A stretch of 25,066 nt of DNA from positions 1 through 25,066 of the IMG/VR virus record IMGVR_UViG_3300025616_000039; one strand, 5' to 3'. Shown one piece after another: positions 5,028-24,646 of the stretch; within the stretch, counting starts at the first letter, position 1, and each line of letters begins with the position of its first letter. The DNA is from a virus. Both the position numbers and the translations under genes were made by a program. The notes under the pieces are model-generated. The model searched no databases and was not told the origin of the DNA. It saw only the letters and a list, made by a program, of their open reading frames with translations.

Positions 5028-5079
5028 GAATATTTCGTAAATCTTGCCAAATAAACGGTGTGATTTGATAAGTATTTAT

Positions 5080-9040: not shown

Positions 9041-10261
9041 GTGAAGAATTATACATTCCATTTTGAGGTTGAAGACATACTGCAACAATTTGCCGCAGCA
9101 CTCAACGATATTATTGTTAAAAGATATAACAAAGACAGAGAGCCTGAGGATCAGATACATGTTAACTTCGTATATGCGCCAAAATCGAGAACAATTTTTG
9201 ATTTAGTTAACAAGAATCAGATGCACAAAATGCCATGTATATCTATCTCAATAGGTGGAATTAGACGCAATACTAACAGAGTCTTCAATAAATTGGATGG
9301 ATCGTCTTGGAGTAATACCTTTACCAAAACGCCATCTACTGCCAATTGGATTAATTTATTACAGCCAGTTCCAATAGACATAACAGTTAATGTTTCTATA
9401 TTAGCAAGACTTCAATCTGATATCGATCAGATAGTAGCCAACTTCGTTCCATATACAGATCCATATTTTGTTATTTCTTGGAAATGGCCCGATATTATCC
9501 CATTTGCTGACTTTGAGATAAGAAGTATAGTAAAGTGGGGAGAAAGCATAAATTTTCAGTATCCCTCGGATTTTGGAAAAGAAACTCCATATTGGACAAA
9601 TGCGGATACTTCATTCACAATAGAAAGTTGGATGTTCAAAAACAAACAACCAGACGGAAAGCCTATTTATGTTATCAATCATACCTTTAATGCTGTTAGC
9701 GCAATAGAAGATTATAATATAATGAAATCGCTAGAAAGCGAATATATTACAGATTATCGTGTTATTTCTGCTAGGCCACAGAGTATGCTAATAGAACCTT
9801 TTTATACATATATCGGGTCTGAGGCAATACCATATGATAAAACATTTAAAATAATTGGAAAGATGATGGATTATGTGGATACAGTTTATTTGAGTTCTGT
9901 TAACTGGAATATGTTCAATTATACCACTACTGGAGATTTTATAACATCTGGTCCATCTATTGTAGATAATTTCTCAGTTAGTAGCTTTTATGCATCTGCG
10001 GATTATCCACCATTTTCTGGTATAGAGATGCTATCTTCTATGTGGAACATAATTGATAAAAATCAAATAGAGTTTACATTTACACCACAACAAACGGGTA
10101 TTTTTGATATCATATTACTAAATACGGCTGGATATGGAATTTTGTCCAAAGATGTTGTTAGACCAACATTAAATCCATATAAAGAAGGAACCGTAGAATA
10201 TAATAATTATACGGAATTTCAGTATCCATATGTGAGTGGAGTTGAAATTAAATATACTTGA
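9041..10261 (+). CDS. Tail sheath stabiliser/tail completion protein, gp15-like
   Basis: This 406-residue virion protein starts at GTG 9041; no nearby ATG has a better site. T4 gp15 caps the contractile tail tube and sheath where the tail meets the neck. The pattern seen here is an ordered set of strand-rich segments typical of gp15: VNFVYAPKSRTIFDL, then MPCISISIGGIRRN, then LQPVPIDITVNVSILARL with a helix DIDQIVANFVPYTDPYF, then a FADFEIRSIVKWGESINF strand. T4 gp15 is about 270 residues. Here about 150 extra C-terminal residues form a beta-rich extension not explained by the family. The assignment is by remembered family pattern; confidence is moderate. It is followed by virion-type genes. 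Confidence 0.62.
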   Translation: MKNYTFHFEVEDILQQFAAALNDIIVKRYNKDREPEDQIHVNFVYAPKSRTIFDLVNKNQMHKMPCISISIGGIRRNTNRVFNKLDGSSWSNTFTKTPSTANWINLLQPVPIDITVNVSILARLQSDIDQIVANFVPYTDPYFVISWKWPDIIPFADFEIRSIVKWGESINFQYPSDFGKETPYWTNADTSFTIESWMFKNKQPDGKPIYVINHTFNAVSAIEDYNIMKSLESEYITDYRVISARPQSMLIEPFYTYIGSEAIPYDKTFKIIGKMMDYVDTVYLSSVNWNMFNYTTTGDFITSGPSIVDNFSVSSFYASADYPPFSGIEMLSSMWNIIDKNQIEFTFTPQQTGIFDIILLNTAGYGILSKDVVRPTLNPYKEGTVEYNNYTEFQYPYVSGVEIKYT

Positions 10262-10277
10262 TATGAGATCATGAAAC

Positions 10278-10294
10278 GATAAATATTATAAATA
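10278..10294 (+). promoter_or_regulatory. Late-type element GATAAATATTATAAATA
   Basis: GATAAATA (10278-10285) and an exact TATAAATA (10287-10294) overlap in tandem and are followed by GAGG and the ATG at 10304. The exact TATAAATA is identical to the T4 late consensus but is only 9 bases from the ATG, so the upstream GATAAATA is the better placed of the two. Confidence 0.5.
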
Positions 10295-10303
10295 GAGGAA
10301 TAT

Positions 10304-10750
10304 ATGGCAATTATAACAAAAGAAGCATTAAAGGATTATTTCAAAACAGGAAATAAACCTATAGAATCAAATTATACAGATTTAATAGATACTTTATCTA
10401 ATGTAACTAGTGGTATACTAATTGTTAATCTTGATTCAAGAGTAGCGTTTTCATCCACAGGAGATACATTAGAGTTTGAGTTAGATGTTTCAATCTCATC
10501 TACGTTTTCTCCTCTTATAGTGTCAGCTGCCACATATAACGATCAAACGAATTGGGAGTATTTTAATCAAGTTTCGATGATGCATCCATTTCCTTTAGGA
10601 GGACTTCTCCCACAATATCAGAATACTACATACGGTAAAGTCGCCTATACATGGGATAGTGCAGAGCGAAATACGGAATACTATATAAGATATAGATCAT
10701 ATGCGGATGGTATGTATTCACCGTATATAGCAGAAAAAAAGAGTATATAA
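10304..10750 (+). CDS. Small virion-type protein, unknown
   Basis: This 148-residue protein has GAGG upstream. The N-terminus (MAIITKEALKDYFKTGNKP, then IESNYTDLIDTL) is a short helical motif often found at the start of phage tail or fibre proteins. The rest is beta-rich, with a fibronectin-like strand pattern near the end (EYYIRYRSYADG). It follows the gp15-like gene and its stop overlaps the next start (TAATG). It is likely a small tail or fibre attachment protein; the exact role is unknown. Confidence 0.6.
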   Translation: MAIITKEALKDYFKTGNKPIESNYTDLIDTLSNVTSGILIVNLDSRVAFSSTGDTLEFELDVSISSTFSPLIVSAATYNDQTNWEYFNQVSMMHPFPLGGLLPQYQNTTYGKVAYTWDSAERNTEYYIRYRSYADGMYSPYIAEKKSI

Positions 10751-11496
10751 TGCAGAATTACATAAAATGTATGATATATATACTATTTTGTATTATATAT
10801 ACAAATAGTGCTATGAGCTGGTTTGGTCCACCTCCGGGAAATTATGGAGCAATAGCTATAACCAGAGTTAATCAATATAATACATCAACAAATCCCAGTC
10901 CATGGGATATATCCGTAACTGATGTATCGATATATGAAAAGACATTTTTTGATTATGGGGATACTAATTATATTCCAGATCATGTAGCGGGACGCATGGC
11001 TACCAATGCATTTTATTGCGGTTATCCTATAACATTTAATATATGGATACGAAATTCTAGTACAGCACCGTCTGGATATAGTAGTGCCACGCTAGAATAC
11101 TTTCAAGGTACTAATAGTCTTAATAGTACAAATTGGATTAATATATCCACAATAACCAATTTTATTCCCGTGCAAGGAATAGAGGGCGCACATTTTGGTG
11201 TATTAACATGGACACCACCATATAGGACAAATGAGTTATATCTTGTAAGAATATGGGCGGGTTTGAAGAACGGAATGCAGAGTGCCGATAAAAAAGAAGA
11301 GAACATAGACAAAGATGGAAATGCACAAACATGGAAGGATTCTGAGGTTGTACTTATAAAGGTTAGAGATAAACAGGTTCCAGGATATGTTGAGCCTTTA
11401 CTAATTATAGATAACGGTATAGTAAAAGAAACAAAACCTAACATATTTACTAAATGTTTTAGGAAGTTTATAGCATTATTTAAAAAGGAGAAATAA
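10750..11496 (+). CDS. Exported or surface protein with N-terminal signal, unknown
   Basis: This 248-residue protein has a hydrophobic N-terminal segment (residues 6-18, CMIYILFCIIYTN), then SAMSW, which fits a Sec signal peptide cut near residue 21. The mature part is beta-rich with a fibronectin/Ig-like look (ELYLVRIWAGL) and a basic C-terminal helix (CFRKFIALFKKEK). No enzyme motif is seen. Its start is coupled to the preceding stop and only one base separates it from the next gene. An export signal on a gene in a phage virion cluster is unusual and suggests action in the host envelope or periplasm. Confidence 0.6.
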   Translation: MQNYIKCMIYILFCIIYTNSAMSWFGPPPGNYGAIAITRVNQYNTSTNPSPWDISVTDVSIYEKTFFDYGDTNYIPDHVAGRMATNAFYCGYPITFNIWIRNSSTAPSGYSSATLEYFQGTNSLNSTNWINISTITNFIPVQGIEGAHFGVLTWTPPYRTNELYLVRIWAGLKNGMQSADKKEENIDKDGNAQTWKDSEVVLIKVRDKQVPGYVEPLLIIDNGIVKETKPNIFTKCFRKFIALFKKEK

Positions 11497-11497
11497 A

Positions 11498-12526
11498 ATG
11501 AAGAATAGGATAGTTATAGGATTGGTATTAGGATTGATTATAGCAAGCACAAGTTTTGCAGCCGTAGATACTCAGATGTTAGTTCAAGTTGATGCACGAA
11601 TGAAGGAGGGAACTAAATTCCATAACGAGAATAAGGCAAATAAGGCGATTAGCGTATATGAAAGCATAATTAAAGATTATCCAACAGCTTCTGAAGATAT
11701 CTTATTCTTGGCTAAACTTTCTATAGGTAAATGTATGGCTATTACGAATTTTTCATCATCTTTTAATTATGTGGAAAATCTAATACAAACATCACCAACA
11801 ACCAACAAAAGTCTCATGGCAAACGCTAAACTTCATATGGGAAGATGTTTGGATTCTACCGGAAGATTGGGAGAAGCTAAAGAAATCTATGATGATATAC
11901 TTGTTAAATATTCGGCAGATACAAATATAATAGTGGAATATGTATATGAAGCTAAAAGACAGATTTGTGTACTTTTAGTTACTCAGAAAAAATATGCAGA
12001 TGCTGAAATTAGTTTTAGAAATGTTCTCAAGGAATATCCACAAGGAACCCCATTTTATGTAAATGTAAGCAAATTGCTTGGAAGTTGCCTATTGAAACAA
12101 GAAAAATATTCAGATGATCTAAAATTAATATTTGAACCCACATACAAGGTAGTGGGATTAGTTGATGAGTTTAAGGCATGTATTAAAACCATATCTCCTA
12201 AGGCATTAAAGAAGAAAATGTTTGCAGACAAACGTTCTTTTACTGGAGAAGAAGGCAAAAAGTATATGGATGATACGCTTGGAGCACTTGTTGTTGCTAT
12301 GAATGATCCCATGATGAACGGAATTGAGAAGGCTTTATTGGATATTGGCATTAATATCCCAGAACAGAACAGAACAGACTTTTCCACTTTTGCCAGTAAC
12401 GTATTAGTGCAAGTTAATAATATTGACGCTGATCCATCCGATGATAAGGTTACTGGGGTTCTCTCACTCTATATGGGTGTTGATGCATGGAATAGTTTTG
12501 TTAAAACATATAATGGCGAAAAGTAA
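11498..12526 (+). CDS. Secreted TPR-repeat protein
   Basis: This 342-residue protein has a clear Sec signal: basic start (MKNR), hydrophobic core VIGLVLGLIIAS, then SFAA before the mature protein (about residue 24). The mature part has several TPR-like helix pairs (NKAISVYESIIKDYP, AKEIYDDILVKYS, AEISFRNVLKEYP), resembling YbgF/BamD-type periplasmic TPRs. A strong AGGAG site is upstream. Such domains bind protein partners in bacterial envelopes. It is unusual in a T4-like cluster; it may be acquired from a host. The function is unknown. Confidence 0.7.
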   Translation: MKNRIVIGLVLGLIIASTSFAAVDTQMLVQVDARMKEGTKFHNENKANKAISVYESIIKDYPTASEDILFLAKLSIGKCMAITNFSSSFNYVENLIQTSPTTNKSLMANAKLHMGRCLDSTGRLGEAKEIYDDILVKYSADTNIIVEYVYEAKRQICVLLVTQKKYADAEISFRNVLKEYPQGTPFYVNVSKLLGSCLLKQEKYSDDLKLIFEPTYKVVGLVDEFKACIKTISPKALKKKMFADKRSFTGEEGKKYMDDTLGALVVAMNDPMMNGIEKALLDIGINIPEQNRTDFSTFASNVLVQVNNIDADPSDDKVTGVLSLYMGVDAWNSFVKTYNGEK

Positions 12527-12542
12527 ATCCATAGGAGAGATG

Positions 12543-14141
12543 ATGAGGTTTAAATATCATATCTTTTGTGGAATTATGGGTTTATGTTTTGTTGGGTGTT
12601 CTAGCGTACCCCAACAAAACAATATTCGAATATCTTCTACGCCGCAAATAATTAACAAAACTCGCTTATTGCCTATAGATAGTATAAAAATAGATGTACC
12701 AAATAGTGATAAAATATCTAAAATATCTAAAATATCCTATTTGGGTATTACAAATAGCACAACAGATATAGACTCAGCTATTATCGTTTACATGGAATAT
12801 CAAAAAATATCCGATGTTCAAATAAATCGTTCAATAGCTATTAGTAAAGAATATTTAAATAATATAGATATAAATACATTATCTAATGCACAAGCTACTC
12901 TATCTAGAAAAACTTACAGCACACCATCAGTTCAATCAGATAAAACTTTTATTGTGCCAGCTGTTCAATCTAACGAAACATTTATTATACCCACGGTTAT
13001 GTTTAATGAATTAGCTAACACATCATTGGTTATATCGATAGAGACAGATAATGCACAAATCGTCCAGTCTATTAAACCTTCTATTATACAAGTTATTCAA
13101 TCTATGAAAACAGTTATACATACGATATTTAGTAAGCGAACAGAGATTTCAAATAAAACTACAAAAACCAAATTAGCAACATCAACAGAAATCATGGATA
13201 ATGCTAGAAAAGAATTATATAGTAGACAGATGGATGCACGATATATTAACATAGATAATATGAGAAGTTTGGAAGGTACAAAGGTATTAGATTGGTGGTA
13301 TCAAAAATTATCTGGAGATCCAATAGCTATAAGTACGGCCTCTATTACTAATATCAATAATTTACGTATGATTGGACAAGTAACAACTCCAATAGATGCG
13401 GCCTCTGAGAAGAATCAATTAGATGAACTAGCGTGGTTCAAAGAACGGGGATTTAATGGGGTATTATTAGTATGGAAGGGAGAACCAATAAATAAATTGT
13501 GTCTTATAGCAAGAGCACTAAAACAGGATGGATGGGTGGTTGCTGTTACGTATGGTCCAGAAGAAACTTCAGATACTGAGATTTATGTAGATCCTGCTAT
13601 TTATTATGATATGTGTTCTATGATGCTTCCTTATTGCGATTTTGTAATACCCGTATGGCGCAAAGCTACAACACATCACTTAAAAATCAATGGAAATATA
13701 TATCACAATATATTATCTGGAATAATAAGAGAAGTCGCACCCAATATTCCTATTATTGGTGAAACATATACAGGTATCAGCAAAGATGGATTGCTAGAAA
13801 TGCAGTCTAGTGAATTTACCGGAATGGCCGGAACTTTGGTGTTTAATGCATCTTATAATAATATGTCTTCAGATAAAATGATAGAATTGTTAAATATTAA
13901 TAAAATTCCAAATCCCTTTATATTTTGCGTTGTCGGACCCCAGCCTTACTGGGAATGGTATCCAGGCGTACATATATCTCCTAATGAAGCTATTGAATAT
14001 AATATCGTAAAGGGTAAAGAATTGAATAGCCTTGGTCATGGTGCGTTAGTGTTGGCTGGTGGCGGCGGCGGCACTCGGAAATTGAATGGAGTTGATGTGA
14101 CTGATGATTTAGTCAATACTAAGTGGAGAGCTGGGAGATAA
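12543..14141 (+). CDS. Predicted lipoprotein with barrel-like hydrolase-type domain
   Basis: This 532-residue protein starts at ATG 12543, 5 bases after AGGAG; ATG 12540 would be too close. A signal peptide ends in FVGC with lipobox Cys at residue 19, so the mature protein should be lipid-anchored. Residues about 30-240 are Ser/Thr/Ile-rich and look disordered, with short repeats (KISKISKISYLG). The C-terminal about 250 residues alternate strands and helices like a (beta/alpha)8 barrel: FNGVLLVWKGE, WVVAVTYGPE, CDFVIPVWR, IPIIGETYTG, FIFCVVGPQPYWEW, GALVLAGGGGG. This resembles glycoside-hydrolase-type barrels; E in GETYTG and others are candidate catalytic residues. The 3' end overlaps the convergent homing nuclease gene by 33 bases. 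The assignment is inference; it could be a cell-surface or lysis-related enzyme or an inactive adhesin. Confidence 0.45.
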   Translation: MRFKYHIFCGIMGLCFVGCSSVPQQNNIRISSTPQIINKTRLLPIDSIKIDVPNSDKISKISKISYLGITNSTTDIDSAIIVYMEYQKISDVQINRSIAISKEYLNNIDINTLSNAQATLSRKTYSTPSVQSDKTFIVPAVQSNETFIIPTVMFNELANTSLVISIETDNAQIVQSIKPSIIQVIQSMKTVIHTIFSKRTEISNKTTKTKLATSTEIMDNARKELYSRQMDARYINIDNMRSLEGTKVLDWWYQKLSGDPIAISTASITNINNLRMIGQVTTPIDAASEKNQLDELAWFKERGFNGVLLVWKGEPINKLCLIARALKQDGWVVAVTYGPEETSDTEIYVDPAIYYDMCSMMLPYCDFVIPVWRKATTHHLKINGNIYHNILSGIIREVAPNIPIIGETYTGISKDGLLEMQSSEFTGMAGTLVFNASYNNMSSDKMIELLNINKIPNPFIFCVVGPQPYWEWYPGVHISPNEAIEYNIVKGKELNSLGHGALVLAGGGGGTRKLNGVDVTDDLVNTKWRAGR

Positions 14142-15371
14142 ATTAAACCAATCTAAGAAACATTGTTTGTCATAAAAACACAAGAAGTCTAAGTTGTTCT
14201 TAATCGCATAAGATATCTTCATCGGATCTCTTTCGGTCCATATATGAATAGCATCTCTATAAGAAGTCTTTTCTTTGCCTTTGGAATTAATTTCTTTAGA
14301 TTTGGCAGACCACGACTTAATCATATCAAGCTGTTCCGGTGATCCTATATAAGGAGATTCACCATGCATCCAAGTGAAATTTAATTCAATATATGTGTTC
14401 GTTGAAGGAATAAAGAAATCACACACAAATGGGTAATTTTCGTCCTTGTGGTGATGAATCGCATCTGGGTACTTTTGTAGAAGTAATTCATATATCATGT
14501 CCTCTTCTTTTGATTTTCCTAATGAATTGTTAGCTTTTTTTGTTTTATATATTTTTTCTTGGGTGGCACCAGAGTCATAAAGAAATTTTATCTTTTCTTT
14601 GATCTTTGGAGATTTTAATGGATGATCTACTCCGTAATTTTGCAAACAAGTTGCCTTTTTTTTAGCTTTAATGATGATAGATTGGCTTGCGTTTTTGACA
14701 CCATATTTATCAAACATGGTATGTTCCATTTTGTCTTTGATTTCAGTAGATTGGATTGGATATAAAATCCCATAATGTTTCATAGAAGTTTGTTTTTTCT
14801 TTTCTTTTATCGAGTCGGCCTGACTTGCGTTTTCTACACCTAATCTATTAAAAGTAGTTTGTTTTGATATTTGTTGTATAATCGCACTTTGCATAGGATT
14901 TTCAACACCATAATGTAGAAGAGTGGTTTGTTTTTTCTGTTCTTTGATTATGTTTGATTTGCTTGGATTATCTACGCCAAACTTTTGGATGCATGTTGAT
15001 TTATACTTTTCTTGTATTTCTTTTGATTGCGCTGGGTTTTCTACCCCATAGTTCTTCAAAGTGGTTTGTTTTTTCTGTTCTTTATTATCTGGATGGTTTG
15101 CAGAACATTTTAGCGAACAGACGTTTAAATTATATCCAAGACTCAACGTAATGATGTTTCTTTTGTTTTCTTCACCACACACTTCGCATTTAGGAAATTC
15201 TGTAATATCATTTATATACCAATATATTTTCTGTTTATATGGATAATCCTTTATGATTGGACAGAAGTTATCAACTATATCGTATATGTTTCTATGGTTG
15301 CGTTTTAAATCGTGAGTTAATCCTTTTGTTAATTTTGATCTAAGAAAATTTGCAATTTCGGTATCTATCAT
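14109..15371 (-). CDS. Free-standing homing endonuclease with YGV repeats
   Basis: This 420-residue - strand protein has AGGAG 7 bases before the ATG. The N-terminus has a zinc knuckle (CEVCGEENK, later CSLKC). Seven repeats of about 25 residues follow, each with an LKNYGVENPAQS-like core, probably DNA-reading units. The C-terminal nuclease core has CDFFIPS then YIELN, with an upstream EEDMIYELL helix, a PD-(D/E)XK/Vsr-like arrangement in which the usual final Lys is Asn. Followed by FTWMHGESP, typical of phage nucleases of this kind. It shares repeat architecture with the nuclease at 5080 but is not a close copy. It lies directly beside the intein-bearing portal gene and is transcribed against it. 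Confidence 0.78.
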   Translation of the reverse strand: MIDTEIANFLRSKLTKGLTHDLKRNHRNIYDIVDNFCPIIKDYPYKQKIYWYINDITEFPKCEVCGEENKRNIITLSLGYNLNVCSLKCSANHPDNKEQKKQTTLKNYGVENPAQSKEIQEKYKSTCIQKFGVDNPSKSNIIKEQKKQTTLLHYGVENPMQSAIIQQISKQTTFNRLGVENASQADSIKEKKKQTSMKHYGILYPIQSTEIKDKMEHTMFDKYGVKNASQSIIIKAKKKATCLQNYGVDHPLKSPKIKEKIKFLYDSGATQEKIYKTKKANNSLGKSKEEDMIYELLLQKYPDAIHHHKDENYPFVCDFFIPSTNTYIELNFTWMHGESPYIGSPEQLDMIKSWSAKSKEINSKGKEKTSYRDAIHIWTERDPMKISYAIKNNLDFLCFYDKQCFLDWFNLSPSSPLSID

Positions 15372-15460
15372 TTTATCGCTCCTTAATAAGTATATGTAAC
15401 GGGACAGCAGTTAGATCGCTCCAACTGTTTCTCATTAACTTAATTTAATGGGATTACCGT

Positions 15461-15487
15461 TATAAATACTTATGGGTTTAGTAAATA
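15461..15487 (+). promoter_or_regulatory. Tandem late-type elements ahead of the portal gene
   Basis: An exact TATAAATA (15461-15468) matches the T4 late consensus and lies 38 bases before the ATG. A second AGTAAATA (15480-15487) lies 19 bases before it, followed by AGGAG. This is the best placed of the late-type elements in the window. Confidence 0.6.
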
Positions 15488-15506
15488 TTAATAGGAGAAT
15501 TTATTT

Positions 15507-18500
15507 ATGGCAGTGAACGGCATGGGAATGGGTAACGCAGGGACTTCATCGGCTGGGCAGAGTTTCCTATCAACATTAATTGCTAGAATGCCGTATACAT
15601 ATAAAGTTTTACAAAATGCCATAGAAGCAAATCCAAAATATGAACTATTCAACAGTCTAACCTCTAGAAAAGAACAGCGTCTACGTCAGCAATCTATACT
15701 CCAAACGGATGAAGGCGGGGCTGGGATGATGATGCTTGATAAGCGTTATCATCAGATTATGTATGCGGATGTAGATACAGACAAGGTTAGGCGTATCATG
15801 GAATATCGCAAGATGGCTGGGTATGCCGAATTGGCAGACTGTATTGAAGAAATTGCAGATGAAGCATTAGTTAAGGATGAGCAAAGCGAAATCGTCAAAC
15901 TATTCCTCAAAGGTGATCATGATAAGGTTATTGTAAAGGCTGTACAGCAAGAATGGAATAAATTTGTAACGAATTTTGATTTAGACAATAAAGGATGGGA
16001 ATTGATACGCCAGTTCCTTGTAGAAGGTGAATTATACTTCGAAAACGTAATTTCTGAAGAAAGACCAGATTATGGCATTATTGGCATTATAAGAGTTCCT
16101 ACAGAATTGATAAATGTTGTATATGATAATCTACAGAATCAGATGATTCGTGGATATTTACTGCGTAAGCCTATAGTAAATCCAAAGAAAACCATATCCA
16201 ATCAGGCACAGGAAGAATTGATTATTCTAGACAAGAACCAGATTACTTATGTGCATTCGGGCTTATGGAACGAAGACAGGACAATCAGATTGCCCTATAT
16301 AGAGAACTCCAGAAGGGCATACAAGCAGTTGTCCTTGGTTGAGGATAGTATCATCATCTATAGATTAGTACGTGCCCCAGAACGCCTTGTGTTCAAGGTA
16401 GACGTAGGCAACATGCCAGTTCCAAAGGCCGAAGAGTACATCAAGAAGCTGATGCAACAGTATTGGTCTAGGAAGAATTTCGATAGCTCACAAGGGCGAG
16501 TTGGCAACGTATACGACCCACAGAGTATGTTAGATGCATATTGGTTCACGAAGAGAGGAAACTCTTCTGGTACGGAAGTTACCCAGCTTCCCGGTGGTTG
16601 TTTGGCGATGGACACTAAAATACCACTACTCGATGGGCGAGAGCTGACATTGACTGAAATGACAAAAGAATTCAACGAAGGAAAACAAAATTGGATATAT
16701 AGTTGCAATCCAGAGAACGGTCATATAGTTCCCGGAAAAGTGTCATGGGCTGGAGTTACGCAGAAGTCGGCCAAGGTATTGAAGATTACGATGGATAATG
16801 GCGAGTCCCTGATTTGCACACCAGACCATAAATTTCCTACAGTACTAAGGGGTAAGCAGAGGGCTGACGAGTTGGTGGTTGGGGATAGTGTACATGCATT
16901 ATATAAGCAAAACAATAAAATAAGTAAGAAAACATCTGCGTATGAACAAGTTTATCAACACGATACCAAGACATGGGAATTTACACATAGAATGGTTTCT
17001 GAAAATACGATCAACGGAACACCCGTTTATATCCATGATTCAAATAACATAAGAAATGATAGATACACAACAATACATCATATTAACTTCAATCGATTTA
17101 ATAATGAACCATCAAATTTATGCAAGATGAATTATTGGGATCATTTAAAAATGCATTCTAACAAAAAAACAGATATCATACGAGAGAATATATCCAAAGG
17201 CGTAAAACAGTCATGGGACAATATGGACCCACAGGAAAAACAAACTCGGGGAAACCATATATCCAATATCGGAAAAATTTGGAGAGAGACAGCAACACCA
17301 GAACAAAAGAAAAAATATTCAGAAAAGATGCGAATTGCGTCTAGTGATAGATTCATTAATATACCAACTCTCAGAAAACAACTTTCAAATATTTCAATAG
17401 AAACTTGGAAAGATAAAGATATACGCAAGGACAGAACAGATAAGATAACAGCTAAATGGAAAGATCCTATATACAGAAACAAGATGATATCGCATAAGGG
17501 CTTAAAATGTTCAGAAGAGGCTCTTCGCTATTTAATCGATATTATTAAACAAAACGATATAAAAACACAAGTAGCGTTAGTCAATTACTTGTCTGTACAA
17601 AATAAACAAAATATATTTAATCAACAATTACTTTCTGATAATAAAGGAATCTACTGGAAAGGTAATATAACCGAAAGCAACGTAAGATTTTTTATTAAGA
17701 AACATGGATACACTAGTTTTAAACATTTTATGGATGAAATTAGCGTGTTTAATCATAAGATAGTTTCTATTGAGTATTTGGCCGATTCTATCGAAGTAGG
17801 TACCCTGACCATCGACAAAGATGAAGAAATACACAACCATCATACATTTGCGATTGGGTGTGGGATATTTACATACAATTCGAATTTAGGACAATTAGAT
17901 GATTTAATGTATTTCGTAAAGAAACTTTACAAGTCGTTAAAAGTACCTGTAAGTCGTCTTGATCCAGCCGATCCATTCAAGGATGGAAATGAAATCACTC
18001 GCGAAGAATTACGATTTGCTCGATTCATTATTCGTATTCAGAACCAGATTGCACAGGGATTCAAACAGGCGTTCATTACGCATTTACAGTTAAGAGAAAA
18101 GGACAAGAGAGATCCAGAGAGCAAGAGTATATGGGAGAAGTTCAAGTTACGTGAACATCATATTAACGTAGTATTCAATCCACCTTCTTATTTTGCTACT
18201 ATGCGCGAACAGCAGATATTCGACTTGAAGTCTAACAATTTCCAAAAGTTGACTGGTGCGGAATTGATTTCAAATAGTTTTGCACAGAAGTACTATCTTG
18301 GATTAACTGAAGAGCAGATGGCAGAGAATCGTGAATGGTTGAGAAAGGATGCAGCACTATCTTGGGAAATTCAGAATATTGTATCTAGTGGTCCTGATTT
18401 TAGAAAGCAGATGTCAGCTATGGCAGATCTTGAGAATGTTGGTCAGGGTGCTGCTTTGCCTACTGGAGGAGCACCTGGGGGTGGTGGAAGTGCATTACCC

Positions 18501-18623
18501 AATGGTGGAGAAGCTCCTCCAGAGTTTGGTCCCGGCCCAGAAACTGGAACAGAAGGAGCTACGACACCAACTGGAGGTGGAGCAGCACCAGTACCAGCAG
18601 CATCCGCGCCACCAGCAGGATAA
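15507..18623 (+). CDS. Portal vertex protein, T4 gp20-like, split by an intein
   Basis: This 1038-residue precursor; removing the 427-residue intein (residues 365-791) leaves a 611-residue portal protein. The portal forms the DNA gate at the head vertex and a nucleation point for head assembly. The T4-family pattern includes ELADCIEEIADEALVKDE (residues 108-125), LVEGELYFENVI, and LPGG just before the intein, with SNLGQLDDLMYFVKKLYKSL just after it, which together restore a continuous conserved portal motif. A Gly/Pro/Ala-rich tail (about 60 residues) follows and exceeds T4 gp20 (524 residues). The start follows AGGAG and late-type promoter elements. Splicing is required for a functional portal. 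Confidence 0.9.
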   Translation: MAVNGMGMGNAGTSSAGQSFLSTLIARMPYTYKVLQNAIEANPKYELFNSLTSRKEQRLRQQSILQTDEGGAGMMMLDKRYHQIMYADVDTDKVRRIMEYRKMAGYAELADCIEEIADEALVKDEQSEIVKLFLKGDHDKVIVKAVQQEWNKFVTNFDLDNKGWELIRQFLVEGELYFENVISEERPDYGIIGIIRVPTELINVVYDNLQNQMIRGYLLRKPIVNPKKTISNQAQEELIILDKNQITYVHSGLWNEDRTIRLPYIENSRRAYKQLSLVEDSIIIYRLVRAPERLVFKVDVGNMPVPKAEEYIKKLMQQYWSRKNFDSSQGRVGNVYDPQSMLDAYWFTKRGNSSGTEVTQLPGGCLAMDTKIPLLDGRELTLTEMTKEFNEGKQNWIYSCNPENGHIVPGKVSWAGVTQKSAKVLKITMDNGESLICTPDHKFPTVLRGKQRADELVVGDSVHALYKQNNKISKKTSAYEQVYQHDTKTWEFTHRMVSENTINGTPVYIHDSNNIRNDRYTTIHHINFNRFNNEPSNLCKMNYWDHLKMHSNKKTDIIRENISKGVKQSWDNMDPQEKQTRGNHISNIGKIWRETATPEQKKKYSEKMRIASSDRFINIPTLRKQLSNISIETWKDKDIRKDRTDKITAKWKDPIYRNKMISHKGLKCSEEALRYLIDIIKQNDIKTQVALVNYLSVQNKQNIFNQQLLSDNKGIYWKGNITESNVRFFIKKHGYTSFKHFMDEISVFNHKIVSIEYLADSIEVGTLTIDKDEEIHNHHTFAIGCGIFTYNSNLGQLDDLMYFVKKLYKSLKVPVSRLDPADPFKDGNEITREELRFARFIIRIQNQIAQGFKQAFITHLQLREKDKRDPESKSIWEKFKLREHHINVVFNPPSYFATMREQQIFDLKSNNFQKLTGAELISNSFAQKYYLGLTEEQMAENREWLRKDAALSWEIQNIVSSGPDFRKQMSAMADLENVGQGAALPTGGAPGGGGSALPNGGEAPPEFGPGPETGTEGATTPTGGGAAPVPAASAPPAG
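16599..17879 (+). mobile_element. HNH homing-endonuclease intein in the portal gene
   Basis: This 427-codon in-frame insertion splits LPGG from SNLG in the portal. The N-terminal splicing block begins with Cys1 (CLAMDTKIPLLDG). Block B is TPDH (intein residues 74-77). The C-terminal block ends HNHHTFAIGCGIFTYN (Asn427) followed by Ser+1. The residue before Asn is Tyr rather than the usual His. The nuclease is HNH type: TTIHHINFNRFNNEPSNL (intein residues about 157-174) and DHLKMH (181-186). A Lys-rich DNA-binding part follows. The borders were set from the conserved extein motif and block residues; confidence in the borders is high. Confidence 0.92.
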
Positions 18624-18632
18624 TTAATATTG

Positions 18633-18640
18633 GATAAATA
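18633..18640 (+). promoter_or_regulatory. Late-type element GATAAATA ahead of the long fibre gene
   Basis: GATAAATATTAT, then CAGGAG and ATG 18656. The TAAATA core ends 15 bases before the start. It shares the full TAAATATTA with 10278, 15480 and the - strand element at 1963-1970. Confidence 0.5.
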
Positions 18641-18655
18641 TTATCAGGAGTCTAA

Positions 18656-21600
18656 ATGCAACAATTTATTACAAACATCTCCGAAAGAGACACATGGAAC
18701 TTTCAGTCAACGGCATATTTCAATGTCATTTGGGTAGATGGACTATCTGGTACAGATGGTGCCATATATCTCAATGGACAGAACGTTTATGGTATATTAT
18801 CGGGTAATGCTTTTCTTATAAGCGAATTACAGGGCTTATCTGGTAATTGGCAGGATACTTATTCTATTGTTCAACAGAACAGTGCAGATTGGATTTCAAC
18901 TTATACTACAGTTCAAGCTAACAGTTCCAACTGGACTAATTCATATACCAAAGTAGCATCTACTTCAGCAAATTGGGATTCCGTTTATTCTACAGTTAAA
19001 AACACTTCTGGTGATTGGGAATCGGTTTATTCTACAGTTAAAAGCACTTCTGGTGATTGGGAATCGGTTTATTCTTCGGTTAACAATACCAGCGCAAATT
19101 GGAATTCTGTTTATTCACAAGTATGTTCATTAAGTTCCGTGTGGGTAACTAATATATCCGCACTTTCTACTTACACCCAGAATCTTTCTACTGCTATACG
19201 TGACCTAAGCGGAAAGTATTTAACGATTGTTGATGCTGGATTAGAATATCAGGCAATTGGCAGTTACTTATCGGGGAATAGTGTACTAACGGATTTAAGT
19301 GATGTTACAATTGCTTCACCTGATTTGGATCAGATTTTAAAGTTCAATGGTACGGAATGGATCAATGGAAGTCAGTCAACGGTGAATGGTGGTGCTGGCA
19401 TTGATTATTTCTATTACGATTATAATTCAGATATATCTCCTTATTTAACATTAAACAAAACTCCATTTATTGGATCTGAATTGTTAGAATCTGTATCGGC
19501 TGTTAATGAAAAAGTATTATTAGATGGATATCTTACGCCACTATCTGGCATAGGTGGAACACAGATTGATGCTGGTGTATGGACATTTGATATCTGGGGA
19601 TATGTTGATGTAATGACGGACGATTCACATATTATTTGTGATTTATATACTAGAAATCTAACAGGTGGCGAAACATTCTTATTTGGGGCGTCGAGTGGAT
19701 TTTTGACTGATGCGTTAAGTCTATTCAGCACAACAACTATTCAACCCGAATTTCCAATTATACATACAGATAGATTATTAATTAAGATTTATGGTCAAAC
19801 GAATGCATTAGTCAATAGAACAATATATTTTGTTCATGGCGGCAATGCACATTATTCGCATTTCAATGCACCGCTGATAACTCGCCACAACGATTTGGCT
19901 GGATTGCAGGGTGGTGGAGCAACTGAGAGATATCATCTCAATTTAAATACGTATAATAATTTAAACAATAATTTAGATAGTATCATGTCAACGGATACTC
20001 AGGTTAGATCATTGAGTTCAGGCTGGGCGGGTACTCAGACAACCGTTAATTCAAATAGCGGAAGATGGGAAAATGCTTACACTAATTTAGTTAGTAATAG
20101 TGCGGCTTATTTACCTACTGGTGTTACTGTTTGGGATATTAGTGGTAATTTTATAGCAGATTATGGTATGAATTTAATTGCCGCAGTATCTTCTACTTCA
20201 GTGCCTATAAGCGTTAATGCTACAAATGTTACAATTAAGTTAGGCGTAGGGACATTTTATGTTGGTGATACTAACTTATTACTCAACGATAAAGTAAATT
20301 TAATAGGATCTGATAGAACTACTACTTTAATTTCCTTTATATCAACTGTACCAGATCATCCACAATATGGTTGTGTTAATCCCGGTGAAAATTCTACTAT
20401 CGCTAACTTATCTATTATAAATACCACACATAATAATACAGTTAATGAATTGAGTTTTGCAAATATAAATAAAAATAACGTAGTAGTTGAATCTTGCGAT
20501 TTTTATGGTGGTCGAGATAACTTAGCGTTAGACGGCGGAAGTATTACATTCAAAAATTGTACCTTAAATAGCCATTATGATAATTTAATAATGGGTAGTG
20601 GTACTAATACTTTTGAAAATTGTAGAATTATAACGACTCAGGGTACATTTGATTCTTTTAAACGTAATATTGTATGTTTTAGTGGTACACTTAATATATT
20701 TAATTGTGAATTTACTGCTCAGAATAATTCACTTATGTTTGAAACACATAATATAATGGGTTCAACTGGTGGAATTATCAATGCTTACAATAGTAAGTTC
20801 AGTTCAACAGGTGGTTCATCTAATTATAATTTTTATAATAATGGTAATACTGCAACATTTAATATTTGGAATAGCCATTATACTGATCCTGTATTTGGTA
20901 TAGTTAATGGTGATGGTGGAACTCACTATACATCAGATTTATCTTTAGTTGCTTCTACTTCCGGTAATTGGAATTCAACTTATACAACAGTCCAAAATAA
21001 TTCGTCAACTACTTGGCTTGGCGATAGTGCTGTCGATTCTTTAGTTCATAGTACTTCTGCTAATTGGAATAATGCGTATACTAATTTAACAACTAATAGT
21101 GCGGCGTATTTAACTGCTGTCGATATTTCTTTGATAGCTTCAACTTCCGGTAATTGGAATTCTACTTATACAACTGTTAATACAAATAGCGCAACTACTT
21201 GGCTTGGCGATTCAGCAGTTGATAGTTTAGTCCATAATACATCGGCTACTTGGAATAATGTTTCTGCATTAAGCCAATATTTGCCTTTGTCTGGTGGAAC
21301 AATTACTGGTAATCTATCTGCATTAGGAACTACTTATTTATCAGGTGATGTTGGTATTGGAACTACAACACCAAACGAAAAATTAACAGTATCTGGTAAT
21401 ATATCTGCTAGTGGAACTCTAAGTGCTTCAAATATATTTTCAACTACTTCTGTTATAACTCCAAAAGTTATTGGTGGTAATACAACTACATCTGATTTAT
21501 ATTTACAAACAACTACAAGAGCTGGGGTTGCAGGTGCAGATATGCATTTTCTTGTTGGGAATAATGGTGGAACTGAAGCAATAACAATTTTGAATAATGG

Positions 21601-22078
21601 TAATGTGGGGATTGGAACAGCGAGTCCTACAGTAGCTTTAGAAGTTAATGGTGATTTATTAGTAAATGGAGCGAATGGAAGAATTTGGGGTATCAAAGGG
21701 CTAGTAGGCACTGTTTATTTTCAATACGGTGGCGATCAGTATAATCGTATAGAAACAACAGGAGGTCAGCCAGCAGCATTTAGAGCCTATCATGGAACAA
21801 TATTCTACGGACAGGCAGGAATAGCTGCAAGAATAGGCCTATCGGATACCAATATAGGTTCTTGTTTTTATGGTGATGTTGGTATTGGAACTACAACACC
21901 AAACGAAAAATTAACAGTATCTGGTAATATATCAGCATCAGGAAATATTTCAACAAACAATATCAGCGTAAGTGGATATCAAGGATATACACATCCAAAC
22001 TCACTTAAATTAACAGATTCGGTTACTGGTGGAGTAATTGAAGTTTATTTGCGTGGCGGTATTTTGACATTAGCATAA
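18656..22078 (+). CDS. Long tail fibre protein with 14-residue repeats and beta-helix
   Basis: This 1140-residue probable trimeric fibre has GGAG 6 bases upstream. Residues 62-159 are seven 14-residue units with the pattern S-(A/G)-x-W-x3-Y-x2-V, with sparser copies near residues 465-495 and 765-870. Residues about 515-760 look like a right-handed beta-helix (short strands with stacked Asn, as in TIFENCRII-type turns), a fold common in receptor-binding and glycan-cleaving phage proteins. The C-terminus has two GIGTTTPNEKLTVSGN units, a common phage fibre motif, and no autocleavage motif is obvious. It lies after the portal and before two more adhesin-type genes. There is no signal peptide here, unlike the next two genes. 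Confidence 0.72.
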   Translation: MQQFITNISERDTWNFQSTAYFNVIWVDGLSGTDGAIYLNGQNVYGILSGNAFLISELQGLSGNWQDTYSIVQQNSADWISTYTTVQANSSNWTNSYTKVASTSANWDSVYSTVKNTSGDWESVYSTVKSTSGDWESVYSSVNNTSANWNSVYSQVCSLSSVWVTNISALSTYTQNLSTAIRDLSGKYLTIVDAGLEYQAIGSYLSGNSVLTDLSDVTIASPDLDQILKFNGTEWINGSQSTVNGGAGIDYFYYDYNSDISPYLTLNKTPFIGSELLESVSAVNEKVLLDGYLTPLSGIGGTQIDAGVWTFDIWGYVDVMTDDSHIICDLYTRNLTGGETFLFGASSGFLTDALSLFSTTTIQPEFPIIHTDRLLIKIYGQTNALVNRTIYFVHGGNAHYSHFNAPLITRHNDLAGLQGGGATERYHLNLNTYNNLNNNLDSIMSTDTQVRSLSSGWAGTQTTVNSNSGRWENAYTNLVSNSAAYLPTGVTVWDISGNFIADYGMNLIAAVSSTSVPISVNATNVTIKLGVGTFYVGDTNLLLNDKVNLIGSDRTTTLISFISTVPDHPQYGCVNPGENSTIANLSIINTTHNNTVNELSFANINKNNVVVESCDFYGGRDNLALDGGSITFKNCTLNSHYDNLIMGSGTNTFENCRIITTQGTFDSFKRNIVCFSGTLNIFNCEFTAQNNSLMFETHNIMGSTGGIINAYNSKFSSTGGSSNYNFYNNGNTATFNIWNSHYTDPVFGIVNGDGGTHYTSDLSLVASTSGNWNSTYTTVQNNSSTTWLGDSAVDSLVHSTSANWNNAYTNLTTNSAAYLTAVDISLIASTSGNWNSTYTTVNTNSATTWLGDSAVDSLVHNTSATWNNVSALSQYLPLSGGTITGNLSALGTTYLSGDVGIGTTTPNEKLTVSGNISASGTLSASNIFSTTSVITPKVIGGNTTTSDLYLQTTTRAGVAGADMHFLVGNNGGTEAITILNNGNVGIGTASPTVALEVNGDLLVNGANGRIWGIKGLVGTVYFQYGGDQYNRIETTGGQPAAFRAYHGTIFYGQAGIAARIGLSDTNIGSCFYGDVGIGTTTPNEKLTVSGNISASGNISTNNISVSGYQGYTHPNSLKLTDSVTGGVIEVYLRGGILTLA
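18839..19132 (+). repeat. Seven in-frame 42-bp (14-residue) tandem repeats
   Basis: Each unit encodes S-(A/G/S)-x-W-x3-Y-x2-V-x3. The fifth and sixth units share a 31-bp identical stretch at 19004-19034 and 19046-19076, so at least that step is a recent duplication. Confidence 0.85.
20942..21258 (+). repeat. 186-bp in-frame duplication in the long fibre
   Basis: Codons from 20942 (SLVASTSGNW) match those from 21128 (SLIASTSGNW) with a 186-base offset. Both carry TTWLGDSAVDSLVH. DNA identity is high but interrupted by mostly synonymous changes; the second copy fades at about 21258. Confidence 0.8.
21344..21405 (+). repeat. 62-bp perfect direct repeat, first copy
   Basis: Identical to 21872-21933 over 62 bases, encoding the GIGTTTPNEKLTVSGN fibre motif. 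The copies flank a unique stretch of about 466 bases (21406-21871). Confidence 0.95.
21872..21933 (+). repeat. 62-bp perfect direct repeat, second copy
   Basis: Second copy of the repeat at 21344-21405. Recombination between the copies would remove the intervening 528 bases in frame, because 528 is divisible by 3. Confidence 0.95.
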
Positions 22079-22087
22079 GAGGAATAT

Positions 22088-23479
22088 ATGAAGAAGAAAA
22101 TTTTAAGTTTAATTTTAGGTTTATTTGCGATTGGATTAAGTGCTGGCCCTTGGGAACCAGTTAATATTAATACCAATACTGGTTATTTAAATCAGACGAA
22201 TATTAGTATTCAAGGCACTGGAACATTTTCTATGGTGAATATTATTACAACCAATCAGAACGCAGTAACTATCATAGGCAACGTTCCGGGCTATATGCAA
22301 TTAAATCTCAAGAACACGAATTCAGGAGCATTTGCTTCTGGTGATTTGGTGATAACAGCCAATAACGGATCAGAGACAAATCATTATATGGACTTAGGAA
22401 TAAATGGAAGTGGTGGCGGCTTATCTCCATTTACTAACGCTAATGCTGCTTATCTGTACTCTTCTGACGACAATATGAACATTGGAGCAGTAGGGACAGG
22501 CGGATCGGTTAGGATATTTAGTGGTCAGGCAACACAAGCACAAGTAACTATATCTAGTACTGGCGTTGGAATCAGTAATAATGTTACGATTGAAAATGTA
22601 TTGAATGTAGGTGGAAGTTCTACGTTTAGGACTAATCTGAATGTGCTAGGTACTTTATCTACTTCCAACGGCATATACATGGAAAATGCCGGAATAACTA
22701 TAGTAAGCGGTAATGGCTTTGGAGAATTACAATTTATAGGCGGTGGTGCAGTGGGAATTACTGCTGATAGTGCCTTAAATATTGAAGCGGCCAATTCTCC
22801 TCTTAATATTCAGACTCGTAATACTGGCGATATAACTATAAATCCAGAACATGACGGCGGATCAACGCTTTATCTTGGAAAACTAGGTGATGAAGATAGG
22901 ACCGTGGTTAATGGAACTCTTACAGTAACAGGCACAACCAATCAGAACGCAGTAACTATCATAGGCAACGTTCCGGGCTATATGCAGTTGAACCTAAAGA
23001 ATACGAATTCAGGAGCATTTACTTCTGGTGATTTGGTTATAACTGCTAACAATGGATCAGAAACTAATCACTATATGGACTTAGGAATCAATGGAAGCGG
23101 CGGTGGCTTATCTCCATTTACTAACGCTAATGCTGCTTATCTGTACTCTTCTGACGACAATATGAACATTGGAGCGGGTTGTGCCTCTAACATCAACGCT
23201 ACAGTTAATATCTATGGCGGTCAGGCAACACAAGCTCAGATAACAGTATCTAGTACTGGCGTGGTATTTGTGGGGACTGTGACAGCTAATGGTAGTACGG
23301 TACTGACCACCAACTCCCCCATCGCGGCGAGGCAGGTGACGAACGCGCCGTGGATGCTCGCAAGCTTCATCCCGACAAACTGGACGTTCACCATTTCCAA
23401 TAACATCGCCGTTTTCAACGTGGGTTCATGCACCGGCCTTCAATTCGTATGGAGTTCCACCAATGCGTACTTGCCTTAA
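22088..23479 (+). CDS. Signal-bearing fibre/adhesin-type protein with internal duplication
   Basis: This 463-residue protein has GAGG before the start. It begins with a textbook Sec signal (MKKK, ILSLILGLFAIG, then LSA before GPWEPV). The rest is strand-rich, Asn/Gly/Thr-rich fibre sequence. A block of 81 residues occurs twice (residues about 54-134 and 283-363), matching the 242-bp DNA duplication. The C-terminal about 60 residues are in clearly GC-richer DNA than the rest, as if replaced. The C-terminal style (TANGSTVLTTNSPIAA) is that of phage fibre ends. A signal peptide on a fibre-like protein is odd for a virion part. The end overlaps the next gene by 17 bases. Confidence 0.65.
   Translation: MKKKILSLILGLFAIGLSAGPWEPVNINTNTGYLNQTNISIQGTGTFSMVNIITTNQNAVTIIGNVPGYMQLNLKNTNSGAFASGDLVITANNGSETNHYMDLGINGSGGGLSPFTNANAAYLYSSDDNMNIGAVGTGGSVRIFSGQATQAQVTISSTGVGISNNVTIENVLNVGGSSTFRTNLNVLGTLSTSNGIYMENAGITIVSGNGFGELQFIGGGAVGITADSALNIEAANSPLNIQTRNTGDITINPEHDGGSTLYLGKLGDEDRTVVNGTLTVTGTTNQNAVTIIGNVPGYMQLNLKNTNSGAFTSGDLVITANNGSETNHYMDLGINGSGGGLSPFTNANAAYLYSSDDNMNIGAGCASNINATVNIYGGQATQAQITVSSTGVVFVGTVTANGSTVLTTNSPIAARQVTNAPWMLASFIPTNWTFTISNNIAVFNVGSCTGLQFVWSSTNAYLP
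22247..22488 (+). repeat. 242-bp internal duplication, copy 1
   Basis: Matches 22934-23175 at a constant 687-base offset with no indels. By hand I count 18 substitutions, all within 22300-22417, of which 17 are synonymous; the outer 53 and 71 bases are identical. Confidence 0.92.
22934..23175 (+). repeat. 242-bp internal duplication, copy 2
   Basis: Second copy of 22247-22488. The single amino-acid change is Ala to Thr (GCT to ACT) in the SGAF-x-SGD segment. Confidence 0.92.
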
Positions 23480-24500
23480 AATCCTCTTTGCGCTTTTACC
23501 CATTATCGCTTTCTCCGCAACCCTGCCGGGGCATATCGACATTCAGGGCGGTCATGTCACGATCGCGGCGGGGCGTGTGGCGATTGGGCCTCCTGCTCCT
23601 GCTGCTGATACCTTTATTTATGTTGGGAATTCCTCTGGCTATGTTACAAAAAATAATGCAGATACTCTACTTACGGTTGCAGTAGGTCAACTAACACCTT
23701 ATCTAATAAATAATATTCGCATTTCTGGAAATTTTGTATATGCCTTGTTAAGTGGTCCTAGTCAAGGAGTTGAGAAATTAACATCTACGAATTTAAATAG
23801 TATATCGTCTAGCGTTTATAGTTATAATATGGCAACACCTTATGCTTTGTGTATCTATGGTAGTTTTATTTATATGGGAGGAGGTGGAAGCTTTGAGGCG
23901 GGTGATGCAAATATAAAAAAGTATAATTTATCCGATCTTTCTTTTGTTACAAATTCTCCAGCTTATAGCGATAACAATCAATTACGTACTCTCTGTACAG
24001 ATGGTACCTTTATTTATGCTGGTGGTTTCGGAGTACAATGTATAAAAAAGTATAATTTATCCGATCTTTCTTTTGTTACAAATTCTCCGTCTTATGGCGG
24101 CAATATAAGAGATATGGTTACTGTAGGACCGTATATATATATTGGGGGCGCAGTAACCAACGTAATAAAAAAATATAATACATCCGATCTTTCTTTTATT
24201 ACAAATTCTCCGTCTTATGGTGGCCAAATAATTTCATTAATTACTAATAATTCTAAAATATATGCCGCAGGTGGAACGGCTCAAATGATTAAATCATATG
24301 ATATTGATACGCTTGCATTTATTACTAATTCTCCAGCCTATGGCGGATCAATTAATTCCATAGCCATTGTAGGAGACTATATCTATGCTGTTGGACTGGG
24401 TGCTGGGGTAATTAAAAAATATAAGTTATCAACACTTGAATTTGTCTCGGCATCAACTAATGTTGGTATTACTCTGACAAGTGTGGTTGCGGCACAATGA
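23463..24500 (+). CDS. Signal-bearing seven-bladed beta-propeller protein
   Basis: This 345-residue protein has GGAG 7-8 bases before ATG 23463. N-terminal Sec signal (MRTCLKILFALLPIIAFSA) and a Pro/Ala linker are encoded in GC-rich DNA; from about 23611 the DNA is AT-rich. Residues 50-345 are repeats of about 41-43 residues, each with an aromatic-Ile/Val-Tyr strand (FIYVG, FVYAL, FIYMG, FIYAG, YIYIG, KIYAAG, YIYAVG), seven in all, fitting a closed seven-bladed propeller. Most later blades share IKKYNLSDLSFVTNSPSYGG. No catalytic motif is seen. It could be an adhesin, tail tip or secreted binding protein. It ends in an ATGA overlap with the next gene. Confidence 0.6.
   Translation: MRTCLKILFALLPIIAFSATLPGHIDIQGGHVTIAAGRVAIGPPAPAADTFIYVGNSSGYVTKNNADTLLTVAVGQLTPYLINNIRISGNFVYALLSGPSQGVEKLTSTNLNSISSSVYSYNMATPYALCIYGSFIYMGGGGSFEAGDANIKKYNLSDLSFVTNSPAYSDNNQLRTLCTDGTFIYAGGFGVQCIKKYNLSDLSFVTNSPSYGGNIRDMVTVGPYIYIGGAVTNVIKKYNTSDLSFITNSPSYGGQIISLITNNSKIYAAGGTAQMIKSYDIDTLAFITNSPAYGGSINSIAIVGDYIYAVGLGAGVIKKYKLSTLEFVSASTNVGITLTSVVAAQ
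23912..24088 (+). repeat. Near-identical propeller blade repeats
   Basis: 48 bases at 23912-23959 are identical to 24041-24088 (offset 129 bases = 43 codons). A third, diverged copy starts near 24165. The DNA identity suggests recent blade duplication or gene conversion. Confidence 0.88.
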
Positions 24501-24646
24501 CCACCCCACAACCATCCTCGCCCCGCACCGCTCCCGCCCCTCATCCCGGCGCGGACGGCGTGAATCGTCCTCGCCGCCTCATCCCCGGCCCGTCTGGAAA
24601 GTCCGCGCCATCCTCGCGGTGGGGCACTTCTTTGGCGGGGAAATGA
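24497..24646 (+). CDS. Small Pro/Arg-rich protein, unknown
   Basis: This is a 49-residue reading frame coupled at both ends: its ATG overlaps the propeller stop (ATGA at 24497-24500) and its stop overlaps the next start (ATGA at 24643-24646). It is rich in Pro, Ser, Arg and Gly, with RPRRLIPGPSGKS in the middle. The DNA is GC-rich (42 G+C in 60 bases at 24541-24600). Two ATGA couplings in a row are good evidence it is translated, though composition alone could produce an open frame here. The function is unknown. Confidence 0.5.
   Translation: MTTPQPSSPRTAPAPHPGADGVNRPRRLIPGPSGKSAPSSRWGTSLAGK

What the first reader, a model, noticed from the sequence alone, without database searches (positions are those of the whole stretch)
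10750..24500. Five proteins with export signals inside a T4-like structural gene block
Three genes after the gp15-like gene (signal-bearing unknown, TPR protein, lipoprotein) and two fibre-type genes (22088, 23463) start with Sec or lipoprotein signals. Virion proteins are normally assembled in the cytoplasm and lack such signals. The phage may therefore secrete adhesin-like or surface-modifying proteins into the host envelope during infection (superinfection exclusion, receptor masking, biofilm or envelope remodelling). It may also use an unusual route for fibre addition.
Basis: partly seen in the sequence, partly recalled or inferred. Interest (0 to 1): 0.72.

Follow-up and report, generated by a model that had tools for sequence, protein, structure and literature searches.

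The report
Phage fibre cassette with export signals
In an uncultured T4-like phage, and in several of its relatives, fibre-like and other accessory genes wedged between conserved virion genes begin with the signals that send bacterial proteins out of the cell, so the phage probably places these proteins in or outside the envelope of the infected cell, or dresses its particles with them after lysis.

Summary
All five genes start with Sec-type signal peptides (one with a lipobox), and a rule-based detector finds exactly these five among 26 genes; shuffled proteins give about 1%. The detector found 12 of 14 known exported E. coli proteins and wrongly called 1 of 21 cytosolic ones. The window is a 25-kb IMG/VR contig of an uncultured T4-like lineage. 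Comparison with about 90 related loci shows a backbone, gp15–gp20–neck, with two cargo slots: A (gp15|gp20) and B (gp20|neck). All five genes lie in these slots. Signal-bearing genes also occur there in relatives L022, L004, L043 and L072. Inserted gene clusters carry signals in 10 of 38 cases, against 5 of 295 elsewhere (p 2e-7; without the window 5/29 vs 5/291, p 8e-4). In L043 the signal precedes a fibre-region domain 53–57% identical to signal-less cyanophage proteins. In L022 it probably precedes an N-terminal fibre module that signal-less fibres carry (weak match, E 0.005). The signal-bearing genes follow late-promoter-like motifs of the structural block. Real late export is therefore likely. 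Whether the proteins stay on the host or dock onto released virions is open.

The parts
9041..10261 (+). gp15-like tail sheath stabiliser; left border of slot A
   Evidence: Pfam T4-gp15_tss 7e-13, PHROG 227 5e-12; up to 73% identity in relatives
10280..10287 (+). late-promoter-like TAAATATT (followed by TATAAATA 10287-10294), 24 nt before orf10304
   Evidence: same motif 12, 25 and 21 nt before gp15, gp20 and fibre 18656. Consensus match only.
10304..10750 (+). 148-aa protein without signal; fibre-type N-terminal anchor motif (MAIxxxxxLKxxFxxxxKPxxxxxxDLIDS-like)
   Evidence: aligns with N-termini of long slot-B proteins of relatives L055 and L064; no family hit
10750..11496 (+). signal-bearing protein 1, 248 aa, secreted, unknown family; start overlaps the upstream stop by 1 nt
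   Evidence: no Pfam, PHROG, NCBIfam or PDB match of value
11498..12526 (+). signal-bearing protein 2, periplasmic-type TPR protein
   Evidence: Pfam TPR_6 5e-8; TIGR02795 YbgF/CpoB-type 2e-12 but below its curated cut-off; signal score 6.3
12540..14141 (+). signal-bearing protein 3, lipoprotein (FVG|CSS, +2 Ser), 533 aa, C-terminal alpha/beta domain
   Evidence: lipobox; RBS-like taggagag before ATG 12540; AF2 single-sequence model of the C-terminal part low confidence, 35 pLDDT
14109..15371 (-). homing endonuclease (DUF7487), convergent with the lipoprotein gene, in slot A
   Evidence: Pfam DUF7487 3e-34, PHROG 3339 1.5e-27
15507..18623 (+). gp20 portal interrupted by an intein with an HNH-like insert; right border of slot A, left border of slot B
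   Evidence: Portal_T4 1e-92, Intein_splicing 6e-9
18656..22078 (+). long fibre gene without signal, first gene of slot B
   Evidence: N-terminal module shared with L004:4100 (E 9e-21) and the 236-kb relative (E 6e-10); repeats; distal part weakly matches a Thermus phage distal tail fibre (E 3e-5)
22088..23479 (+). signal-bearing protein 4, fibre-like, two internal copies of a 242-nt unit (93% identical)
   Evidence: slot B by comparison with relatives
23463..24500 (+). signal-bearing protein 5, beta-propeller/kelch-like with about 41-aa blades; start overlaps upstream gene
   Evidence: Kelch_6 4e-8; four repeats; propeller-type matches by Foldseek on a low-confidence model

Best explanation
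The five genes are true Sec substrates (one a lipoprotein) carried as cargo in two insertion slots of a T4-like structural operon, between gp15 and gp20 and between gp20 and the neck gene. They are read with the structural genes late in infection. The host Sec machinery moves them into the periplasm and beyond; the lipoprotein is likely anchored in a membrane. There these adhesin-like, propeller and TPR proteins act on or in the infected cell's envelope. For the fibre-like ones the most likely job is binding the receptor or surface glycans that the virion fibres recognise, so that sibling particles are not lost on the dying cell, or being released at lysis next to the virions. Shown by sequence: the signals, their position, recurrence in relatives, and union of a signal with a cyanophage fibre-region domain in L043. 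Inferred: late timing, export in vivo, and the surface function.
For: Five of 26 genes with signals versus about 1% in shuffles and 2/122 in classical T4-like blocks (calibrated in 94). The backbone gp15-gp20-neck is conserved and usually adjacent in the loci; slot genes carry signals in 10/38 clusters versus 5/295 elsewhere, p 2e-7; excluding the window 5/29 vs 5/291, p 8e-4. Independent cases: L022 two fibres, L004:5033, L043:276, lipoprotein L072:1514. The L043 domain is 53-57% identical to signal-less proteins in four cyanophages, three of them with annotated tail-fibre genes nearby. The L022 first fibre has an H_lectin/gp53-like C-terminus. Late-promoter-like motif before gp15, orf10304, gp20 and fibre 18656, none just before the signal-bearing genes.
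Against: No neural signal predictor and no proteomics. None of the five window proteins has a detectable homologue in IMG/VR, INPHARED or species genomes with the searches made, so none can be shown to be conserved or under selection; 10750 was not scanned for in the collections. Function at the envelope is inferred. Most relatives have no cargo in the slots. Host unknown, so Sec/Lol behaviour is assumed.
Confidence: 0.55

Rival explanations
1. Exported virion fibres: the signal-bearing fibre-like proteins are real virion components that are secreted, mature in the periplasm, and dock onto the virions (or onto the signal-less fibre 18656) when lysis mixes the two compartments.
For: In L022 both fibre-like genes of slot B carry signals and no signal-less fibre is there; the module right after the signal aligns with the N-terminal module of the signal-less first fibre of L004, though weakly (E 0.005), and that module in turn matches window 18656 and the 236-kb relative. 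T4 short tail fibres are annotated as addable after phage completion. Tip adhesins encoded after the fibre gene are known in T-even phages (gp38; own knowledge).
Against: No case of a Sec-exported fibre in a tailed phage was found in the papers searched. A lipoprotein and a TPR protein in the same phage fit the envelope better. The linking alignment is short.
Confidence: 0.2
2. Passenger genes (morons): exported host-type genes picked up by recombination or with the homing endonuclease at tolerated sites, with no role tied to fibres.
For: Slot A holds a DUF7487 homing endonuclease; G+C jumps to 0.56-0.57 at 23300-23600 and 0.53-0.69 after 24500; TPR, propeller and lipoprotein genes look host-like; slots in relatives also hold non-fibre genes (L057, L062).
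Against: Signal-bearing cargo recurs with fibre-type domains (L022, L043), not with random host genes; genes are tightly packed, some overlapping, behind structural promoter-like motifs. This rival also implies real export.
Confidence: 0.15
3. The N-terminal hydrophobic segments are not signals but virion anchors or membrane-penetrating segments that stay uncleaved in the particle.
For: The detector cannot tell a cleaved signal from a short N-terminal anchor; all evidence is sequence only.
Against: All five have basic n-regions and small residues at -1/-3 or a lipobox; the four cyanophage homologues of the L043 domain do without such a segment.
Confidence: 0.06
4. Assembly artefact: host DNA joined to a phage contig.
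For: Composition shifts at 23300-23600 and after 24500; no orthologues of the genes found.
Against: Cargo is flanked on both sides by phage genes in slot A, lies behind the same promoter-like motif as gp15 and gp20, and the same slots hold signal-bearing genes in other contigs.
Confidence: 0.04

Closest known systems
Lambda Lom (and Bor-type morons)
   Same: A signal-bearing envelope protein encoded among the tail spike and tail fibre genes and placed in the host outer membrane (Lom described in PMC12309495)
   Different: Lom is a beta-barrel expressed in lysogeny; here several unrelated secreted proteins, some fibre-like, sit in T4-like structural operons; no barrel family hit
T4-like neck/fibre region (gp12, wac, gp13-gp15, gp20)
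   Same: Homologous gp15 and gp20; a fibre-type gene stands next to a neck gene, as wac does beside gp13 in T4
   Different: Gene order differs (gp15-gp20-neck adjacent, no gp16-gp19 between), and the T4, P-HM1, nt-1 and S-CAM7 blocks hold no signal-bearing fibre
YadA-domain structural proteins of cyanophages
   Same: Large adhesin-like virion proteins thought to serve in fibres (PMC6224464); relative L029 slot-B protein has YadA heads, 1e-58
   Different: L029's protein has no signal, whereas the L022 protein that matches part of it does; passages read in PMC6224464 mention no signal peptide
Phage lipoproteins of superinfection exclusion (e.g. T5 Llp, own knowledge)
   Same: Phage-encoded lipoprotein sent to the host envelope
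   Different: 12540 is 533 aa with a large C-terminal domain and no detectable relationship; exclusion untested

Membership tests
T4-like (Straboviridae-type) structural module | gp15 and gp20 homologues above curated cut-offs | tested here: met
   Pfam gp15 48.7 bits (cut-off 25), Portal_T4 311 bits (cut-off 22.9)
T4-like (Straboviridae-type) structural module | T4 gene order gp13-14-15-16-17-18-19-20-21 | tested here: not met
   Order in this lineage is gp15-gp20-(cargo)-neck-... against T4; so distantly T4-like, not filed as Straboviridae
Sec/SPI or SPII exported proteins | basic n-region, hydrophobic core, -3/-1 or lipobox cleavage site | tested here: met
   calibrated
Sec/SPI or SPII exported proteins | cleavage and translocation in the cell | not testable with these tools
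   needs experiment
Lom-type outer membrane moron | transmembrane beta-barrel of the Ail/Lom family | tested here: not met
   no Pfam, PHROG or NCBIfam hit of that kind for any of the five
Superinfection-exclusion lipoprotein | blocks receptor or DNA entry for related phages | not testable with these tools
   needs experiment; no family hit for 12540; padloc library not searched
Phage tail fibre (22088) | homology to a virion fibre | tested here: inconclusive
   repeat architecture and position only; no match in INPHARED or IMG/VR
Kelch/beta-propeller (23463) | repeated 4-strand blades, kelch profile | tested here: met
   Kelch_6 33.4 bits against cut-off 25.3; blades in model, local Foldseek matches only, TM about 0.17

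The most novel reading that the evidence does not exclude
Tailed phages of this lineage make part of their fibre or adhesin set outside the cytoplasm: fibre proteins are secreted by the host Sec system, mature in the periplasm or on the cell surface, mask receptors there, and attach to virions only at lysis.
Probability: 0.2. Interest if true: 0.87.

Novelty: new variant of a known kind. Interest (0 to 1): 0.6.

Why it matters
Tailed-phage fibres are held to be folded and attached in the cytoplasm. A phage lineage that repeatedly puts export signals on fibre-like proteins, at fixed places in its structural operon, either uses its fibre repertoire on the host surface or assembles fibres in another compartment. 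Both can be tested directly, and either would change how virion genes are annotated: a signal peptide in a structural block would no longer be read as an error or a non-phage gene.

Tried and rejected
Searches for homologues of the lipoprotein, TPR protein, 22088 and the 23463 repeats in IMG/VR, of the lipoprotein, 22088 and 23463 in INPHARED and of the 23463 repeats in species genomes found nothing; a host search through gp15 in species genomes also found nothing, so no host is named. Megablast of the window against INPHARED gave no match. Lipoprotein matches in the PDB (an outer capsid VP5 at E 0.005) and 10750 matches (picornavirus VP1 at E 0.2) were judged chance. AF2 without an alignment failed for the lipoprotein domain (35 pLDDT) and gave only local blades for 23463. 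The 7008 ORF scored as a weak signal from an internal start and was rejected. L045:3264, L041:587 and the 'VPIGNI' hits of L021 and the 236-kb relative are likely false positives of the detector. A chimera was considered and rejected for slot A. Relatives cannot be drawn for a virus record.
Full report
WHAT THE WINDOW IS. The window is a complete IMG/VR record of 25,066 bases, with no nucleotide match in INPHARED. It encodes T4-like functions: primase, clamp-loader-like, GroES-like and helicase proteins, a gp15 tail sheath stabiliser (7e-13) and a gp20 portal (1e-92) split by an intein. Portals of isolated phages are only about 29-32% identical to that of the close relative L003, while IMG/VR holds relatives at up to 73% in gp15. 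It is thus a fragment of an uncultured T4-like lineage. One relative's contig is 236 kb long.

CHECK OF THE OBSERVATION. Shuffled proteins scored 0.7-1.1%; the 236-kb relative scored 10/323 (6/323 at a stricter cut); four classical T4-like blocks (P-HM1, nt-1, T4, S-CAM7) scored 2/122, one of these an antisense ORF in T4. On an annotated E. coli K-12 segment the detector found 12 of 14 exported proteins, called 1 of 21 cytosolic or non-Sec proteins and none of 8 inner-membrane proteins (the exported/cytosolic labels are from my own knowledge of these genes). The lipoprotein should be read from ATG 12540, which has a ribosome-binding-like taggagag, not from TTG 12423. 23463 is a repeat protein of about 41-aa blades with a kelch profile above its cut-off and propeller-like local matches on a weak model; calling it a fibre is not supported.

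WHERE THE GENES SIT. Scans with gp15, portal and neck alignments gave about 90 related loci. With profile searches for the three proteins, the order gp15-gp20-neck is kept in nearly all loci that cover it (L048 is an exception), and in most of them the three genes are directly adjacent. The window departs from this at two places: slot A (gp15|gp20: orf10304, three signal-bearing genes, a DUF7487 homing endonuclease) and, by comparison, slot B (gp20|neck: fibre 18656 and two signal-bearing genes; the contig ends before the neck gene). In close relatives L002/L003, at 73% in gp15, both slots are empty of genes.

RECURRENCE. L022 has two signal-bearing fibre-like genes in slot B, 751 aa from its internal ATG and 2210 aa. 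L004 has a signal-less fibre followed by a signal-bearing gene at 5033. L043 has a signal-bearing 360-aa gene where its relative L045 (the other end of the 236-kb contig) has a signal-less 655-aa gene, beside the same type of 170/171-aa neighbour. L072 has a 356-aa lipoprotein with further hydrophobic segments in slot A. After clustering, inserted genes carry signals in 10 of 38 clusters against 5 of 295 for other genes on the same contigs (p 2e-7). Without the window, which prompted the question, it is 5 of 29 against 5 of 291 (p 8e-4). Slot assignment in L043, L045, L004 and the window was set by hand because one border lies off the contig.

LINK TO FIBRES. The main domain of L043:276 is 53-57% identical to proteins of cyanophages KBS-S-2A, S-SRP02, S-CBWM1 and S-CBS4; in the last three, annotated tail fibre genes lie nearby, and none of the four homologues has a signal. 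The L022 751-aa protein ends in an H-type-lectin/gp53-like fibre tip (7.7e-5, just under the curated cut-off), and after its signal carries a module that aligns with the first 45 residues of L004:4100 (E 0.005), which matches window 18656 at 9e-21. L029 has a signal-less slot-B protein with YadA heads (1e-58) that shares a region with the signal-bearing 2210-aa protein of L022 (1e-4). Orf10304 of the window shares an N-terminal anchor motif with long slot-B proteins of L055 and L064. So the slots look like fibre or adhesin slots in which signals have been joined to fibre-type modules.

EXPRESSION. The octamer TAAATATT lies 12, 24, 25 and 21 nt upstream of gp15, orf10304, gp20 and fibre 18656; the window has 9 copies on the + strand against 3.4 expected, and the 236-kb relative 83 against 42. 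It resembles a T4 late promoter in position and A+T-rich make-up (own knowledge). None lies just before a signal-bearing gene; these follow closely behind, or overlap, the previous gene. Late co-expression with virion genes is therefore inferred, not shown.

INTERPRETATION. The simplest account is real export of slot cargo late in infection. Two readings of its use remain. In the first (about 0.55) the proteins act on the infected cell's envelope or surface. In the second (about 0.2) fibre-like ones dock onto virions at lysis. The first is favoured because a lipoprotein and a TPR protein of the YbgF/CpoB type (below cut-off) are in the same set; the second draws on L022, whose slot-B fibres both have signals, and on the known late addition of some T4 fibres (record note). 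Both predict cleaved signals and differ in the fraction where mature chains are found.

PRECEDENT. Lambda Lom is a signal-bearing outer membrane protein encoded between tail spike and tail fibre genes (PMC12309495). A signal-bearing gene among fibre genes is thus known in kind. Signal-bearing fibre-type modules recurring at fixed slots of T4-like phages were not found in the papers searched, which is a limited search.

LIMITS. No orthologue of the window proteins was found, so conservation and selection cannot be tested. No host is known. Signal calls rest on one home-made detector with modest calibration.

Noticed in passing
window 23300-23600 and 24500-24950: G+C rises from about 0.35 to 0.56-0.57, and to 0.53-0.69 after 24500; the first block spans the end of 22088 and the signal of 23463, the second holds short ORFs, one starting MCEWGN at 24649. 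Suggests recent recombination.
   Followed up: partly
window 22247-22488 and 22934-23175: Internal 242-nt duplication, 93% identical, inside signal-bearing gene 22088, as if recently duplicated.
   Followed up: partly
window 14109-15371, 5044-6363 and 15507-18623: Several mobile elements in 25 kb: a DUF7487 homing endonuclease, an intein with HNH-like insert in the portal, and a second gene (5044) that looks like the same endonuclease type (not profiled).
   Followed up: partly
L015:16229-16747 (minus strand of the 236-kb relative): Type IV prepilin-like N-terminus (MKNKGFTFIEVLIVLAIIGLLLALFVPS) encoded by the phage contig; two short lipoprotein-like genes lie at L014:10034-10852.
   Followed up: no
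L031:7508-12696 (also L032): Two diverged gp15 copies flanking a 949-aa gene, followed by a 339-aa gene before the portal: slot A cargo with a duplicated border gene.
   Followed up: no
L057:6997-9379, L062:4056: Genes that look like radical-SAM activase and ribonucleotide reductase (by eye) inserted between portal and neck genes.
   Followed up: no
L057:11295-12197: Lipoprotein-type gene just after the neck gene, outside the two slots.
   Followed up: no
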